From assembly GCF_000711695.1 (NCBI RefSeq), contig NW_013547008.1, forward strand, positions 124,001 through 188,000: DNA of 64,000 bases, read 5' to 3'. The position numbers were made by a program, and so were the translations under genes. Source of the DNA: Tilletiaria anomala UBC 951 (Eukaryota; Basidiomycota; Exobasidiomycetes; Georgefischeriales; Tilletiariaceae). This document shows, piece after piece, positions 2,745-62,526 of the stretch. The notes below the pieces were generated by a model. The model made no database searches. It had not been told where the DNA came from and saw only the letters and a list, made by a program, of their open reading frames with translations. The stretch's first letter is position 1; the number at the start of each line of letters is the position of its first letter.

Positions 2745-2836
2745 GGACCATTAGCACAGTGGTAGTTGCGCGGGATTGCAACGTGTTAAGTACACTAAAT
2801 ATCCTGAGGTCGCCGGTTCGATCCTGGCATGGTCCT
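2745..2836 (+). tRNA. tRNA-Cys (anticodon GCA) with a 19-nt intron
   Basis: The acceptor arms GGACCAT and ATGGTCC pair fully. The T arm is GCCGG-TTCGATC-CTGGC, with one G-U pair. The anticodon stem CGGGA pairs with TCCTG around the loop TTGCAA, giving anticodon GCA. A 19-base intron sits after position 37, the canonical place. A run of six T at 2838-2843 directly after the gene fits a Pol III terminator. Mature length without intron is 73 nt. Confidence 0.88.
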
Positions 2837-10238: not shown

Positions 10239-10337
10239 CGCTCCACGTGGGACTCGAACCCACAACCGCGGGATCGCGACTTCCCTCTTCAAGAGGTGAA
10301 TAAAAGTCCCGAATTCTGGCCATTGAAATAGCAGAGC
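10239..10337 (-). tRNA. tRNA-Lys (anticodon TTT) with a 26-nt intron
   Basis: On the minus strand the acceptor arms GCTCTGC and GTGGAGC pair with two wobbles. The T arm is GTGGG-TTCGAGT-CCCAC. The anticodon stem CGGGA pairs with TCCCG around CTTTTA, giving anticodon TTT. The intron follows position 37 and contains a short hairpin (CTCTT/AAGAG). Mature length is 73 nt, the same as the other Lys tRNA here. The D stem is TTTC/GAAT instead of the usual GC-rich form (see findings). Confidence 0.85.
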
Positions 10338-18658: not shown

Positions 18659-18966
18659 GGTATAGAAAACGCCTCGAAGGTGAGATGGAGTGGCGGCGAG
18701 AAGAAGTTACCACGCCGCCTGGGTCCAGCCTTCAAGTTGATGTATGCTGTCTTTCTATGGGTGGTGCGAAACTGCAACGAGAGGGACAGTTGGTGAGGCG
18801 GTGATATTTTGCAAAGATCGAAAACGGCCGTCGGCTGCGAGTGTCAAGGTGGAGCGTGCTACGGACGGTTGTGGCAAGCCTGAAATCGTTCCGAAGGGTC
18901 GAAACCTGATGCTGACGCTTCTATATCAGATGACATTGCGCTTTCTACACATCCGAGTCAAGAAGG
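18659..18966. other. Intergenic region between MoaE and the coiled-coil gene
   Basis: It lies upstream of the coiled-coil gene start and downstream of the MoaE stop, both on the minus strand. I see only promoter-type sequence. Confidence 0.5.
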
Positions 18967-19600
18967 CTAAGCGGCTGTAGGGAAATTAGCCTTCCATGTC
19001 GACTGGCTGCCACTTGCTAGATCACGCTGCCCTTCTGCATACACCTCGCGTTTCCAAATAGGGACTTCGCGCTTGACCTGTTCCAACAGCCACTCAGCAA
19101 CTTCGAACGATTCTCGCCGATGTGGACTTGATACGGCAATGACAATGCTGCTCTCGCCCACGGGCACTACACCTAGTCTATGACTCATGTATATTCGAGT
19201 CACCGTTTGCCCATGAAGAAGGCGATCAGAAGATGGGAGGTCTCTGCCTTCGACAGTGGGTTGCAACTGGCCGCTGCGCGCCTTTTGCACAATTGATCGC
19301 ATCGTTTTGAGCGCCAGCTTGGAGTATGCCTCGTACTCTAGTCTGTTGACTGTCCTTTCTGTAGTCATCGTGTACAATCAGCGGTGGGCAGGCAGACAAA
19401 GCCCGTGTGGCGCGGCCCTCACCTTGAAATGTGTCCCGCGTCGTGCCGACGAACATGCAAGTCGCACCAGCCGACGGGCTACGAACAAATTTCATGGCTC
19501 TGGCCTCATCGAGAGGCTCCAAAGTCAGGGTGAATGCGTCTCCGTCCTCGTTGTTGAGTGAGCCTGAAGTTGAGCTCCGTACCTCGTCGTGTGCTTCCAT
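18967..19600 (-). CDS. Molybdopterin synthase catalytic (large) subunit MoaE/MOCS2B
   Basis: Two exons, 19423-19600 and 18967-19358, give 189 residues. The enzyme adds two sulfurs to precursor Z to make molybdopterin, working with the small subunit MoaD/MOCS2A, which supplies sulfur as a thiocarboxylate. Family marks are clear: ATCMFVGTTRDTFQ near residue 50, RLEYEAYSKLALK just after the splice junction, the conserved SHRLGVVPVGE, AVSSPHRRESFE and the catalytic-lysine segment VPIWKREVY. The C-terminal dozen residues are not conserved. The MOCS2A partner is not in the window. A functional cofactor would serve nitrate reductase and sulfite oxidase elsewhere in the genome. Confidence 0.94.
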
Positions 19601-20170
19601 CTTGCCCTGTAGCAGACATCAGTGTACGGGGTAACCCTCTGGATATATATGCCCTGTTTCCGCCTGCGACCTCATCAACACTCCTCAGACCACACTTGTG
19701 GTAGCGCACGGTTGATTGCCGCCCAATATCATATCCTTCATCGTAATTCTTACACATGGAATCTCATGATTCGCACCGCGCAATTCATAAGGTGTCCTCC
19801 CACGCCGCAGGCGGCCCACGGGCCACAAGAAAAGTCCCCGAGGCCCACAGTCCACGTCTCTTCAATCCCGGCTCTTCCGATTTCCCCGAGGGCCAAGGGA
19901 AAGAGTCAAGGCAGACGGAGAGACGAGACAGAGAGTCCCTAATTCTGGTCCACTGTTCCCCACAGCTCGTCCATACAGGTATATAGATCAACAACGATAT
20001 TTTCGCTTCGGATCGATCATTAAGCAAGTCTGTTAAGTCGCCCCATCCTCAAGCGTGGGCTACCCCCGACACACCTTCAGCGCACACTTGCTTCGTGTTC
20101 TGTCATCAACTGACCCACGCATATTCTGAACGATCGAACAGGCTGCGCCACTTTCCAACCGTTCAGCAAC
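19601..20170. other. Divergent promoter region, MoaE and SH3 gene
   Basis: The 570 bases separate the start codons of two genes read apart. No further gene was recognised. Confidence 0.55.
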
Positions 20171-20777
20171 ATGTTTTCTAATCTGCCTGATCATGAATGC
20201 GACGCGTTCTTTAACATCATGGATGAGTACGTTCAACACCTGCTCTGACGCTGCTGTTGCTCCATGCTGACATATTTTTCTATTTACTTGAAACATGGTT
20301 TAGATACTTTTCTCAGCGACCGCAATTGGATCCCATCGCGATTGCCGAGGAAATGGCAGAGCTCCGCGCTGGAGCGAGTCCTGATGATCCCACTTCGAAA
20401 TCGACATCTGGAGCTGTAAATGTAAACTCACAAGCGCCACCACCACCTACGGGGCGAAACCCTGTTGTGTCCACCGAAGAGGCAAGGCCAGCAGAAGAGG
20501 GGGATCCGGACGCCGTAATGTATGCAGAGGCGATATATGCGTGCGTGATAAAACACAACGTCCAATGTTTTCCGTGGTACAAAACACTGGCTGAAAGAGC
20601 TTTCCATTGTGTAACTGCAGGTATCCTAAAAACGAAGCGGATGATCTGGAGCTGGCCAAGGGCGAACGTTTGGTGCTTCTCGAGCGGATATCAGATGATT
20701 GGTGGAGGGGAAGAAGCATGGACGGGAAACGGAGAGAGGGGATCGTACCGAGCGCATATGTCCAAGAATTGCGATGA
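20171..20777 (+). CDS. Small SH3-domain protein
   Basis: Three exons, 20171-20226, 20304-20540 and 20621-20777, give 149 residues. A short helical N-terminus (MFSNLPDHECDAFFNIMDEYF) is followed by a Pro/Ser linker and a single SH3 domain at about residues 95-149. The domain shows ALYDY-like AIYAYPKNEADDLELAKGE, the conserved DDWWRGRS tryptophan pair and the terminal GIVPSAYVQEL. Such adaptors bind PxxP ligands in actin-patch, polarity or MAP-kinase complexes. I cannot assign a named orthologue. Both introns fall in phase and only the spliced form restores the SH3 core, which supports the model. Confidence 0.85.
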
Positions 20778-21023
20778 CCGTAGAAAGATGCGACCTCAAA
20801 CATAACGCAGTTTTGAAATACCATTTTTTGATGTTAGGCTGCCGCCGTTGGGTACAACAACTCTTGAGCTGCTTTTGGCCTTCTCATACCATTTATTGAT
20901 GTCACTAGCGGGCTCATTACAAAAAAAGACCTCCCACAGGCTGATGAAATCTTACAAACTGAATCCTATATGAACACGCACCTACAACAGCAAAAAATCA
21001 CCATGACGGGGAAAAAAGGAGGC
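20778..21023. other. Intergenic region before tRNA-Lys(CTT)
   Basis: No gene was recognised. A T6 run on the minus strand (21012-21017) is the likely Pol III terminator of the tRNA. Confidence 0.5.
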
Positions 21024-58783: not shown

Positions 58784-59398
58784 GGTGAAGCGTCCGTTCA
58801 AGCCACGGCGAAACTAATCTCGACTTGGACCTGGAGTTTCTTCTGCGAACGAGCCGGGTCGTTCTCTCCAGAAGCTGCTGACCGTCAAGAATGCGCTGGG
58901 TTGTGTCTGCGCCTGCGGCCAATGCTGCTGTTGTTGATGATGGTGGTAGCAATGTATGCTCTTGGTGACCATAGGGGTCCATGCGAAGAATTGGATGAAT
59001 CCCTGCCTTACCTCTAGCTGAGAAGCTGTCTCTTGCGAGTGGAAAAAATCTTTTTGCCTGGGCCGAGTGGAAGGATGTAACCCTACTTCCACTTCCCTGT
59101 TCCGCTCGAAAGGAATGGTCACGTGATGCACCCACGTCACCCTTGTCCATTTCATTCCGTTCCATTATTGAGTTGCGTGTGCGTGTAGCTACGCCGTGTC
59201 GCATAGCATAGCAGACAGCGCTGCCTACAAGGGTTAGGGGGACGCCTTCGCCTTGCTTTCATTGCTGGACTTCCTCGACAGCGTGCACGCAAGACCGATC
59301 TGCCAGTGGCCTCCTGTGCTAATAATTTGATCGACGTAGACCTGGGCGTATCTTACGACCGACGCCGCCGTCCCAAGTCCAATCGAAGCCCAGCCAGC
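58784..59398. other. Divergent promoter region, NOP56 and proteasome alpha-1
   Basis: This is a 615-base interval between start codons. An A/T tract (AAAAAATCTTTTT, about 59043-59055) lies in the middle. No gene was recognised. Confidence 0.55.
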
Positions 59399-60436
59399 AT
59401 GTCGCGCTCGGCCTTTGACCGTTACCTCACCGTCTTCTCGCCCGATGGCCGCCTTTACCAGGTCGAATATGCATTCAAGGCCATCACCTCCGCCGGACTC
59501 ACCTCCATTGCTGTCAAGGGAAAGGACTGTGCTGTCGTCTGCGGTCAACGAAAAGTTCCGGTGAGTAGCAATTCGCAGCTGCCTACGTGCAGGTCAATAC
59601 AACTCTTCGGCCTGGGGTTCGCAGTGAACAAGGGCTGACTTCAGATATGTGGTACCTACTGTATGCACCGATGATGCATATACTTGCAGGATAAACTCTT
59701 CGACGCATCGACCATCACGCACATCTTCTCCATCACCTCGGAGATCGGCTGCATCATGACGGGGCGAACCGCCGATGCGCGCTCGCAGGTGCAACGCGCG
59801 CGCTCGGAAGCCGCGCAGTTCAAGTACCAATACGGCTACAACATCCCGCCTGCGCAGCTCGCCAAGCGCATGGCCAACATCAACCAGGTGTACACACAGC
59901 GCGCGGCCATGCGCCCGCTCGGCATCTCCATGATCCTTGTCGGCATCGACGAAGACCCGGCACTCGGCCCGCAGATCTTCAAGATCGACCCAGCAGGCTA
60001 CTTTACTGGCTTCCGCGCAACCGCATCGGGGACCAAGCAGACAGAGGCGACCAATTTCTTCGAAAAGCAATTCAAGAGGAGCAACACCAACACAGCCGGT
60101 AGCGCATTAGGCGCCGTCGGTGGGGCTGGAGCCTGCGTAAGCGAAGGCGCCACGAGCGCTGCCGCATCCGCCGCTGCATCCTCCGCACCAGATGCCGCAG
60201 CGATGGAAGCGGAGGAGATCTCGCGCAGCTTGAGCAGACAGGCCGTCCTCGAGCTCGCCGTGCAGACGCTCTCCACGGTGCTTGCGCAGGATCTCAAGGC
60301 AAGCGAGATCGAGATCGGCATCGTCAGCAGCGAGGAGTTTGGAGACCGGTACAAGGGCGAACATGTTGGCAGGTTCAAGACGCTTGAGGAGGAAGAGATC
60401 AACGCCATCCTCGATTCGCTCGCAAATCGGGATTGA
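59399..60436 (+). CDS. SCL1: 20S proteasome alpha-1 subunit (Scl1/PSMA6)
   Basis: Two exons, 59399-59560 and 59690-60436, give 302 residues. The alpha-type N-terminal signature [28 protein letters not shown] gates the core particle channel. [23 protein letters not shown], the [18 protein letters not shown] helix and [21 protein letters not shown] fit Scl1/PSMA6. The end, [18 protein letters not shown], is also typical. Yeast and human forms are about 245-252 residues; the excess here is an Ala/Ser/Gly-rich insert of some 45 residues at about 186-230, between the FEKQFK helix and the next helix. Alpha subunits have no catalytic threonine, as expected. Confidence 0.95.
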
Positions 60437-60608: not shown

Positions 60609-62526
60609 TCAAATCTTTGCGACCGCATCGGGTGTCTTGACCGGGATAGGAATCAGCACCGGCGTGTCCTCCAGCTCTTCGAAGTCTTCTTTCAGGTCGA
60701 CTTGTGCGCGCTGCGGCATGTCCGCGAGGAAACGCACAATGAGTGGTGTAATGATCAAGCGAAAGGCGGGTGGAAGGAGCATGATGAATTGTCGTCAGTG
60801 AACATGGTGCCAAGCTATCCTCGCGCTGCAACAAACCTCACCAATTGCGACGCGTCGGTCTGAAACTTGGTGCGCGCATACTGCGAGAAAGGTCAACAGG
60901 TGTTGAAATCAGAATGCATTGCTGGCATCCGCAGCGGCCGGTCGTGCACACTTACGGATATGACAGCGGCGAGATTTTCTGAGACGTGGAACAGGGAGCG
61001 TCCCAGCCAACTTCAGTTCCGTTGCAAACCTGCACAGCTACTTTAGACTCTCCTCACCGGTATGTCCAACAGCCATCTTCTTGGCATTCTCGATTCTTTG
61101 CACTCTCGCTTGCAGTGCAGCCGGATCACTGTGATCGCCATAGAGCTTGAGCTGGTCTTGCAATGCCCTGTTCCGCCGCCGCGCCTCCGCGAGCGAGGCG
61201 AGCATCTGCTGGCGCATCGCCGTGGGATCACGGCCTTGCGCCAGCGCCGTCTGCAGACTCTTTTCGGCCATCTGGAGCTTCACGCGCGTCGCGCTAAGTT
61301 CCGTGTCGATGCGTTCAGACAGATTGCGGGCCTGGAAGAAGGCAACAGCGAGGGAAGCAAGCACAGTGTTCGAGAGCCATATCGGACAGATCAGTGTCGA
61401 GAGGCCGAAAGAACGAGATCCACTGCGATCTGAAAGTAATGGATGCTTACCACGACGGCGGCTTGCGAAGCGAAGACCCAGTAATCTGCAAATAAGGGAG
61501 TCAGGTACGATAGCTTCTTTCAAAGGTTGAACCAGGGAGTCTGTTGCAGACTGACAGTTTGCGCTTCCAATCTGACGTGGCGCATAGAGGGAAGAAGATG
61601 TGGATCAGACCATTGTCAAGGGATTGACCTCAATATCGGATATGCGAGGGCTGGGTGCAAAGCGATATGAACCTTCTCGCGGCAGATTCTGTCCTCATCA
61701 ACAAGCGCATCGACCACCTCTTTCACCTGTTGCATGTAGTGTGATCATCCGGTGTGCGATAGCAGAGAATATGACGCCGGAAGGAGCAGAAGGTCAGCCA
61801 GATCTACAGCAGGAATATTACCGTTGAACGCAGCGGTCTTGGACCTCACATTTTGAGCGTCTTAGAAGGGCAGCATGACGGTTGAAAGTGGCGGTGGCAG
61901 CATAGAAACGTCGGAACCAAAGGACCGAGATAACGAGTTAGAACTCATCTATTGAAAGGACAGATGTGAGCGGGAACGCGCACTGATTCCCTTCTTGGGA
62001 CCCAGCTTCTCAAGTTCCTGTCATACCCCAAGGAGAGGTCGATACGGGGGCGACGAGCACGTCAGACAGCCTGGAATAACGCGCATGCAGAGACGGTCAG
62101 ACGGTGAGAGTGACTGCTTGCCTTCAAGGTGAAGAATTCGTTCTGGGGGAAAGGATGCAGACGTCAGCAAGCGATGCATACAGCCAGCGTCCATGGCGTG
62201 TGCGGAGGTCGGCATTGTGAAGCGCACGTACAGACTGGATCATGAGGTCGAACTGCAGAGCGCACGATGAAATGTTAACAGTTCAGAGAGCGGAGAAATG
62301 TGAGTTCTTCAACGCGTCGAAAGCACAAAGGAAGACCGTGAGGGGTAGGGACAGTGTCACGGCGATGCAGTCAATACGGCCGCACTTGTCCGGTAGCTCC
62401 GACTGCACCGCGCAAAGGACTCGCATACACGACGTTTGGAGGGTCAACCTAGTAGTTCCACGGATCGTTGAGCATACACACCATCTCGTCCATCTTCTCC
62501 TCTGCGCTCATGCGCTTGACAACCAT
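60609..62526 (-). CDS. MND1: Mnd1, meiotic recombination accessory protein, twelve exons with micro-exons
   Basis: Exons 62482-62526, 62232-62252, 62122-62142, 61984-62017, 61850-61860, 61673-61726, 61556-61571, 61451-61485, 61058-61331, 60956-60978, 60842-60880 and 60609-60710 join in phase to 224 residues. Mnd1 acts with Hop2 to help Dmc1/Rad51 invade homologous DNA. The spliced product follows the family order: MSAEEKMDEMFDLMIQSNEF, FTLKELEKLGPKKGINAQN, the winged-helix part VKEVVDALVDEDRI and KIGSANYYWVFAS, a coiled coil rich in Gln/Arg, LYGDHSDPAALQARVQRIENAKK, then TENLAAVISYARTKFQTD and VDLKEDFEELED near the end. Exon 3 ends in a GC donor (AAG|GCAAGC); exon 6 uses an unusual GTTCAT donor. 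Usual family length is about 205-230. The start codon and the last acceptor are the least certain points. Confidence 0.85.

What the first reader, a model, noticed from the sequence alone, without database searches (positions are those of the whole stretch)
60609..62526. MND1 hidden in twelve exons, five of them 11-23 nt long
No unspliced frame here looks like a protein except exon 9. Joining exons of 45, 21, 21, 34, 11, 54, 16, 35, 274, 23, 39 and 102 nt by GT-AG or GC-AG signals restores a complete Mnd1 with its winged-helix (KIGSANYYWVFAS) and C-terminal motifs. The 11-nt exon supplies just the residues that link GPKKGI to VKEVVDAL. Five exons under 25 nt in one gene is extreme and could make its splicing depend on meiosis or a special factor. 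From memory, Ustilago maydis is reported to lack MND1, HOP2 and DMC1, so the gene would also be informative about lineage.
Basis: partly seen in the sequence, partly recalled or inferred. Interest (0 to 1): 0.78.

Follow-up and report, generated by a model that had tools for sequence, protein, structure and literature searches.

The report
Fungal MND1 gene with micro-exons
This is the ordinary meiosis gene MND1 of the smut relative Tilletiaria anomala, already in public databases, cut into twelve exons of which five are tiny; what is unusual is how fragmented it is, and that its partner gene DMC1 looks fragmented in a similar way.

Summary
The window is from Tilletiaria anomala UBC 951 (Exobasidiomycetes). 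The twelve listed exon lengths fit the minus strand at 62526-60609 and give a 224-residue Mnd1 (Pfam Mnd1, 85.8 bits). An identical protein is already deposited as T. anomala "meiotic nuclear division protein 1", so the gene and its joining are not new. A spliced alignment with a distant fungal Mnd1, given no exon list, returned all 11 introns; 0 of 100 shuffled loci reached its score. The 11-nt exon is the least secure (2 of 150 local shuffles matched it).

HOP2 is present and deposited. DMC1 is present: modelled with 14 exons, including 22, 7 and 13 nt, and absent from the 120 database hits shown. The RAD51 core and 14 proteasome domains show no such fragmentation. A paper states that Ustilago maydis lacks Dmc1, Hop1, Hop2 and Mnd1; this relative keeps the first, third and fourth.

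Nothing found supports a special or meiosis-dependent splicing factor; no RNA data were available. Micro-exons are known in fungi. Verdict: real, a strong case of a known phenomenon, modest interest. Practical warning: a six-frame domain search misses this gene.

The parts
62482..62526 (-). MND1 exon 1, 45 nt (start codon at 62526)
62232..62252 (-). MND1 exon 2, 21 nt micro-exon, residues 16-22
   Evidence: reached by 1 of 150 local shuffles; missed with template P0004
62122..62142 (-). MND1 exon 3, 21 nt micro-exon, residues 23-29; followed by the GC-AG intron
   Evidence: 0 of 150 shuffles
61984..62017 (-). MND1 exon 4, 34 nt
61850..61860 (-). MND1 exon 5, 11 nt micro-exon between GPKKGI and VKEVV
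   Evidence: same with 3 of 3 foreign templates; 2 of 150 shuffles reach the score
61673..61726 (-). MND1 exon 6, 54 nt
61556..61571 (-). MND1 exon 7, 16 nt micro-exon (KIGSANY region)
   Evidence: 0 of 150 shuffles
61451..61485 (-). MND1 exon 8, 35 nt, end of the winged helix
   Evidence: 3' end differs with P0003
61058..61331 (-). MND1 exon 9, 274 nt, coiled-coil region
60956..60978 (-). MND1 exon 10, 23 nt micro-exon
   Evidence: 0 of 150 shuffles
60842..60880 (-). MND1 exon 11, 39 nt
   Evidence: 3' end differs with P0004
60609..60710 (-). MND1 exon 12, 102 nt including the stop codon
   Evidence: not recovered with P0003 or P0004

Best explanation
The locus is the MND1 gene of Tilletiaria anomala, an intact and ordinary Mnd1. 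Its pre-mRNA has 11 introns of 70-229 nt that are most likely removed constitutively by the normal spliceosome: fungal splice sites are thought to be paired across short introns (intron definition), so an exon as short as 11 nt is no obstacle, though its two flanking introns probably cannot hold two spliceosomes at once and so would be removed one after the other. The protein should pair with Hop2 and help Dmc1 in strand exchange between homologous chromosomes, as in other eukaryotes. The tiny exons probably arose because a gene that kept ancestral introns also carries further introns close to them. Shown: gene identity, exon joining by homology, presence of HOP2 and DMC1 genes. Inferred: constitutive splicing, order of splicing, protein function, origin of the extra introns.
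For: Pfam Mnd1 domain over residues 15-73 at 85.8 bits against a cut-off of 23.5; only PDB match at E<=10 is Giardia Mnd1 4y66, E 9e-17 over residues 3-205; identical deposited protein; foreign-template spliced alignment returns 11 of 11 introns, chance controls; partner HOP2 and recombinase DMC1 (TIGR02238 497 bits, cut-off 447.7) in the same genome; 9 of 11 introns hold an in-frame stop and the other two (89 and 70 nt) shift the frame, so all 11 must be removed for this product. The genome paper says 93% of the 6,810 models are supported by transcripts over >75% of their length (PMC4056295, whole text), which does not name MND1. Two introns (2 and 4) appear to sit at the same place and phase as introns in unnamed relatives P0005-P0007 that read through them (blocks; phase read by me); two or more of three by chance about 0.003 under a simple independence assumption.
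Against: No transcript was seen. The PF18517 C-terminal domain scores 23.8, below its cut-off of 26.1. The deposited protein may itself be a homology-based prediction, so its agreement is not independent proof of splicing. Exons 2 and 5 are not beyond all shuffles (1 and 2 of 150), and P0004 did not return exons 1 and 2. A branch-point-like CTNAY was seen in only 7 of 11 introns. The aligner can thread false tiny exons at poorly conserved ends, as it did at the RAD51 N-terminus. The intron-origin step rests on ORFs of unknown organisms.
Confidence: 0.82

Rival explanations
1. The micro-exons are a regulatory device: their inclusion is poor in vegetative cells and improved in meiosis by a dedicated factor, as Mer1 does for some introns of budding yeast, so that Mnd1 (and Dmc1) are made only in meiosis.
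For: A precedent for meiosis-specific splicing exists (PMC10550323, passage). MND1 and DMC1 in this genome both have several tiny exons. Unspliced or mis-spliced MND1 would mostly be frame-broken (6 of 10 internal exons shift the frame if skipped).
Against: HOP2, which must act with MND1, has no exon under 29 nt. A likely HOP1 has a very long exon (HORMA match in an 860-residue frame). Donor sites after the five micro-exons average 6.1 against 6.5 for all 32 introns (my mean of the values, in-sample). No SRRM_C above cut-off. No RNA data; Mer1-like factors were not searched.
Confidence: 0.07
2. Some of the smallest exons are wrong: the true transcript uses other nearby exons or junctions, and the listed ones were chosen because they complete the expected protein.
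Against: The foreign-template alignment returned 11 of 11 introns without the list; the 11-nt exon was returned with 3 of 3 foreign templates; the deposited protein agrees at 224 of 224 residues.
Confidence: 0.08
3. The locus is a decaying MND1 that is no longer spliced into a working protein.
For: A small gene with 65% of its span in introns and one GC-AG donor; no transcript was seen.
Against: Complete reading frame with conserved winged-helix and C-terminal regions; HOP2 and DMC1 are also complete; the species is described as homothallic with teliospores (PMC4056295, whole text).
Confidence: 0.03

Closest known systems
Mnd1 (meiotic nuclear division protein 1; Pfam PF03962; Giardia structure 4y66)
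   Same: Winged-helix domain over 60 of 60 profile positions, coiled coil and C-terminal region, 224 aa; deposited under this name.
   Different: In protein nothing notable. In gene structure 11 introns in 675 nt of CDS.
Micro-exons in Basidiomycota and other fungi (Phanerochaete P450 genes, Cryptococcus neoformans, Fusarium CYP621A)
   Same: Exons of a few to a few tens of nt that restore conserved motifs: 41 P450 genes of P. chrysosporium with exons of 29 bp or less, shortest 6 bp (PMC1184071, passages); exons down to 1 bp in C. neoformans (PMC3990503, passages); a 1-nt exon in Fusarium (PMC12940212, passages).
   Different: Here five in one short gene of a subphylum described elsewhere as intron-poor: 0.51 introns per gene in U. 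maydis, 1.7 in Urocystis (PMC10262431, passages), about 2.6-2.9 in Tilletia (PMC9172201, passage), 0.92 in Malassezia globosa (PMC4634964, passage).
Meiosis-specific splicing by Mer1 in Saccharomyces cerevisiae
   Same: Introns in meiosis genes (PMC10550323, passage).
   Different: No evidence of regulation here; Mer1-type factors were not searched.

Membership tests
Mnd1 family | Mnd1 winged-helix domain (PF03962) above its curated cut-off | tested here: met
   85.8 bits, cut-off 23.5, residues 15-73, profile 1-60 of 60
Mnd1 family | C-terminal leucine zipper with capping helix (PF18517) above its curated cut-off | tested here: inconclusive
   23.8 bits, E 4.5e-5, below the cut-off of 26.1; the Giardia Mnd1 alignment extends to residue 205
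Mnd1 family | Full-length similarity to a solved Mnd1 | tested here: met
   4y66 chain A, E 9e-17, query 3-205, chain 3-203
Mnd1 family | Obligate partner Hop2 encoded in the same genome | tested here: met
   TBPIP domain at C13:183221-183379, E 5.8e-16; deposited 215-aa protein P0128
Mnd1 family | Meiotic recombinase Dmc1 encoded in the same genome | tested here: met
   Model on C174: recomb_DMC1 497 bits, cut-off 447.7; recomb_RAD51 417.5, below its cut-off of 478.05
Mnd1 family | Binds Hop2 and stimulates Dmc1 strand exchange | not testable with these tools
   needs biochemistry or a deletion strain
Micro-exon gene | Internal exons under about 30 nt required for the reading frame | tested here: met
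   21, 21, 11, 16, 23 nt; the 11, 16 and 23 nt exons shift the frame if skipped, the two 21 nt exons do not
Micro-exon gene | Inclusion of the micro-exons in mRNA | not testable with these tools
   no RNA reads available; genome paper gives only a genome-wide support figure
Meiosis-regulated splicing (Mer1 type) | Splicing differs between vegetative and meiotic cells | not testable with these tools
   no RNA data
Meiosis-regulated splicing (Mer1 type) | A dedicated splicing activator | not tested
   Mer1-like proteins not searched; the animal SRRM_C domain gave only a sub-threshold match

The most novel reading that the evidence does not exclude
In this lineage the micro-exons of MND1 and DMC1 act together as a splicing gate: a splicing factor active in the sexual phase allows their inclusion, so that the Dmc1 interhomolog module is switched on post-transcriptionally; and in related smut fungi some reported absences of this module reflect micro-exon genes that six-frame searches and gene predictors miss.
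Probability: 0.06. Interest if true: 0.65.

Novelty: new member of a known kind. Interest (0 to 1): 0.3.

Why it matters
MND1, HOP2 and DMC1 work as a set and are stated to be missing from the model smut U. maydis (PMC3744442, passage). Their presence together in T. anomala would place the loss after its lineage split off, or make it one of several losses, and gives a homothallic relative in which to compare Dmc1-dependent and Dmc1-independent meiosis. The gene is also a clean warning: its 60-residue diagnostic domain is spread over seven exons, and a six-frame genome search with that domain finds nothing, so absence calls for such genes need spliced or profile-to-genome searches. As a gene, it is ordinary and already annotated.

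Tried and rejected
A plain six-frame search for the Mnd1 domain led nowhere. The idea that meiosis genes as a class are shattered into micro-exons was weakened: HOP2 has six exons with none under 29 nt, and a HORMA gene that I read as HOP1 by its domain has a very long exon. MutS genes were looked at as meiotic/mitotic pairs but only by domain pieces; the naming of C190 as MSH2 and C10 as MSH5 was by eye and I built nothing on it. The aligner threaded false tiny exons at the RAD51 N-terminus that differed between templates, so tiny exons at sequence ends were not trusted. Rfam on the window gave two tRNAs only. One paper search (intron loss with meiosis-specific genes) returned 0 papers.

Full report
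What it is. The window is G000:C14:124001-188000 of an 18.4-Mb assembly. NCBI taxonomy places the species in Ustilaginomycotina, Exobasidiomycetes, Georgefischeriales. The genome paper, which I read whole, reports 18.7 Mb, 6,810 gene models, 93% of them supported by transcripts over more than 75% of their length, a median gene of 1,718 bp and a median protein of 407 aa, and calls the species homothallic (PMC4056295).

Checking the exons. The lengths therefore need homology to be placed. The placement that resembles Mnd1 gives 675 nt and 224 residues with ten GT-AG introns and one GC-AG intron of 70-229 nt. An alternative exon 2 loses 14 profile positions and 19 bits. I then wrote a spliced protein-to-DNA aligner and gave it the region and the Kickxella Mnd1 P0002, without the exon list: it returned the same 11 introns. 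With P0003 it returned 9 of 11 and with P0004 8 of 11, failing at the ends. Whole-locus dinucleotide shuffles never reached the real score (0 of 100; best 102 against 290.8). With only one micro-exon's surroundings shuffled, the real score was reached in 1, 0, 2, 0 and 0 of 150 runs for the 21, 21, 11, 16 and 23 nt exons. The 11-nt exon is thus the least secure statistically, although all three foreign templates return it.

Is it Mnd1? The Mnd1 domain scores 85.8 bits (cut-off 23.5); the second expected domain, PF18517, scores 23.8, below its cut-off of 26.1. The only PDB match with E up to 10 is Giardia Mnd1, E 9e-17, over nearly the whole length. NCBIfam gave no match (0 families). I conclude that it is Mnd1.

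Partners. HOP2 is at C13:183209-184391, six exons (169, 29, 183, 108, 32, 127 nt with stop), deposited as a 215-aa TBPIP protein; my draft differed from it at the N-terminus. DMC1 is on C174: 14 exons of 62, 22, 132, 68, 89, 7, 46, 52, 142, 13, 135, 74, 88 and 75 nt with stop; the 13 introns were the same with 4 of 4 foreign templates, and with the genome's own RAD51 as template the exons from the third on were the same but the 22-nt exon was not found. Local shuffles reached the real score in 0 of 60 for each of its 22, 7 and 13 nt exons. It passes the DMC1 equivalog cut-off and fails that of RAD51. Of 1,760 database proteins at E <= 1e-90 the 120 best were shown, none above 64% identity, so none of those shown is this protein; it may be missing, very short or long, or mis-joined in the deposited set. 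A HORMA-domain gene on C18 (E 2.2e-22) looks like HOP1, and a SPO11-type domain is on C46 (E 8.1e-8); neither was modelled.

How unusual. Introns per kb of CDS are 16.3 in MND1, 12.9 in DMC1, 7.7 in HOP2 and 3.1 in the RAD51 core, whose last three exons of 145, 266 and 510 nt were the same with 4 of 4 templates, while its N-terminus stayed unresolved. The 14 proteasome loci, counted by me from the 28 pieces, have one to three pieces each over a 189-position domain; two loci have an unmatched interior stretch (24 and 31 positions) and none has one of 2-10 positions that would suggest a micro-exon. The neighbouring gene is one of them, an alpha-type-6 proteasome subunit with a long last exon. 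This is a small background, not a genome-wide distribution. In print, introns per gene are 0.51 in U. maydis and 1.7 in Urocystis (PMC10262431), about 2.6-2.9 in Tilletia (PMC9172201) and 0.92 in Malassezia globosa (PMC4634964) (passages). Micro-exons themselves are known in fungi: PMC1184071, PMC3990503, PMC11121469 and PMC12940212 (passages).

How it probably works. All 11 introns must be removed for this product: nine contain an in-frame stop and two change the frame. Of ten internal exons, four can be skipped in frame (2, 3, 6, 11). I think ordinary intron definition suffices; a study on intron definition in S. pombe is cited by PMC11121469 as an experimental test of fungal micro-exons, and I saw only that citation and its title. 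Donor scores after the micro-exons average 6.1 against 6.5 for all 32 introns of the four genes (my means, in-sample). A search for the SRRM_C domain gave only 14.9 bits against a cut-off of 27.

Where the tiny exons come from. Three unnamed database proteins, P0005-P0007, read as Mnd1 pieces interrupted by unrelated residues, as if translated through introns. Their breaks fall before the residue aligned with N23 and around N41 of the T. anomala protein; from the residues at the breaks I infer phases 0 and 1, the same as introns 2 and 4. A third break, after the winged helix, does not clearly coincide with intron 8. The same ORFs run without a break over the sites of introns 3, 5, 6 and 7, and P0005 and P0006 also over intron 1. 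So at least two introns look old, and others may be later gains here or losses there. The organisms are unknown and the phase reading is mine, so this is a lead.

Lineage. A paper states that U. maydis lacks Dmc1, Hop1, Hop2 and Mnd1, citing Holloman 2008 (PMC3744442, passage). T. anomala has three of these by my tests and probably the fourth. Searches for Ustilaginomycotina with DMC1 (2 papers) and Exobasidiomycetes with 'meiotic genes' (1 paper) in the held library showed nothing on this in the passages I saw; subscription journals are mostly not held.

Verdict. The density of micro-exons is a strong example of a known phenomenon. The regulatory idea is open and unlikely.

Noticed in passing
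L010 (G000:C174), genome positions about 18870-20802: DMC1 with 14 modelled exons, including 22, 7 and 13 nt, and no match above 64% identity among the 120 database hits shown; possibly missing or mis-joined in the deposited gene set.
   Followed up: partly
L011 (G000:C13:183209-184391): HOP2, six exons, deposited as a TBPIP-domain protein of 215 aa; my own draft used a different first exon, so its N-terminus may be uncertain.
   Followed up: partly
L058 (G000:C18:130242-131057 and beyond): HORMA domain (E 2.2e-22) whose last piece lies in an open frame of 860 residues, with a cysteine-rich stretch that I read by eye as a PHD finger; likely HOP1, reported absent in U. maydis.
   Followed up: no
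window 59306-60436, + strand: Proteasome alpha-type-6 subunit next to MND1, tail to tail, with a long last exon.
   Followed up: partly
window 2745-2836 (+) and 10239-10337 (-): Two tRNA genes by Rfam, each longer than the 71-position model, so possibly with an intron.
   Followed up: no
proteins P0005, P0006, P0007: Unnamed database ORFs that look like Mnd1 read through introns; two of their breaks appear to match T. anomala introns 2 and 4.
   Followed up: partly
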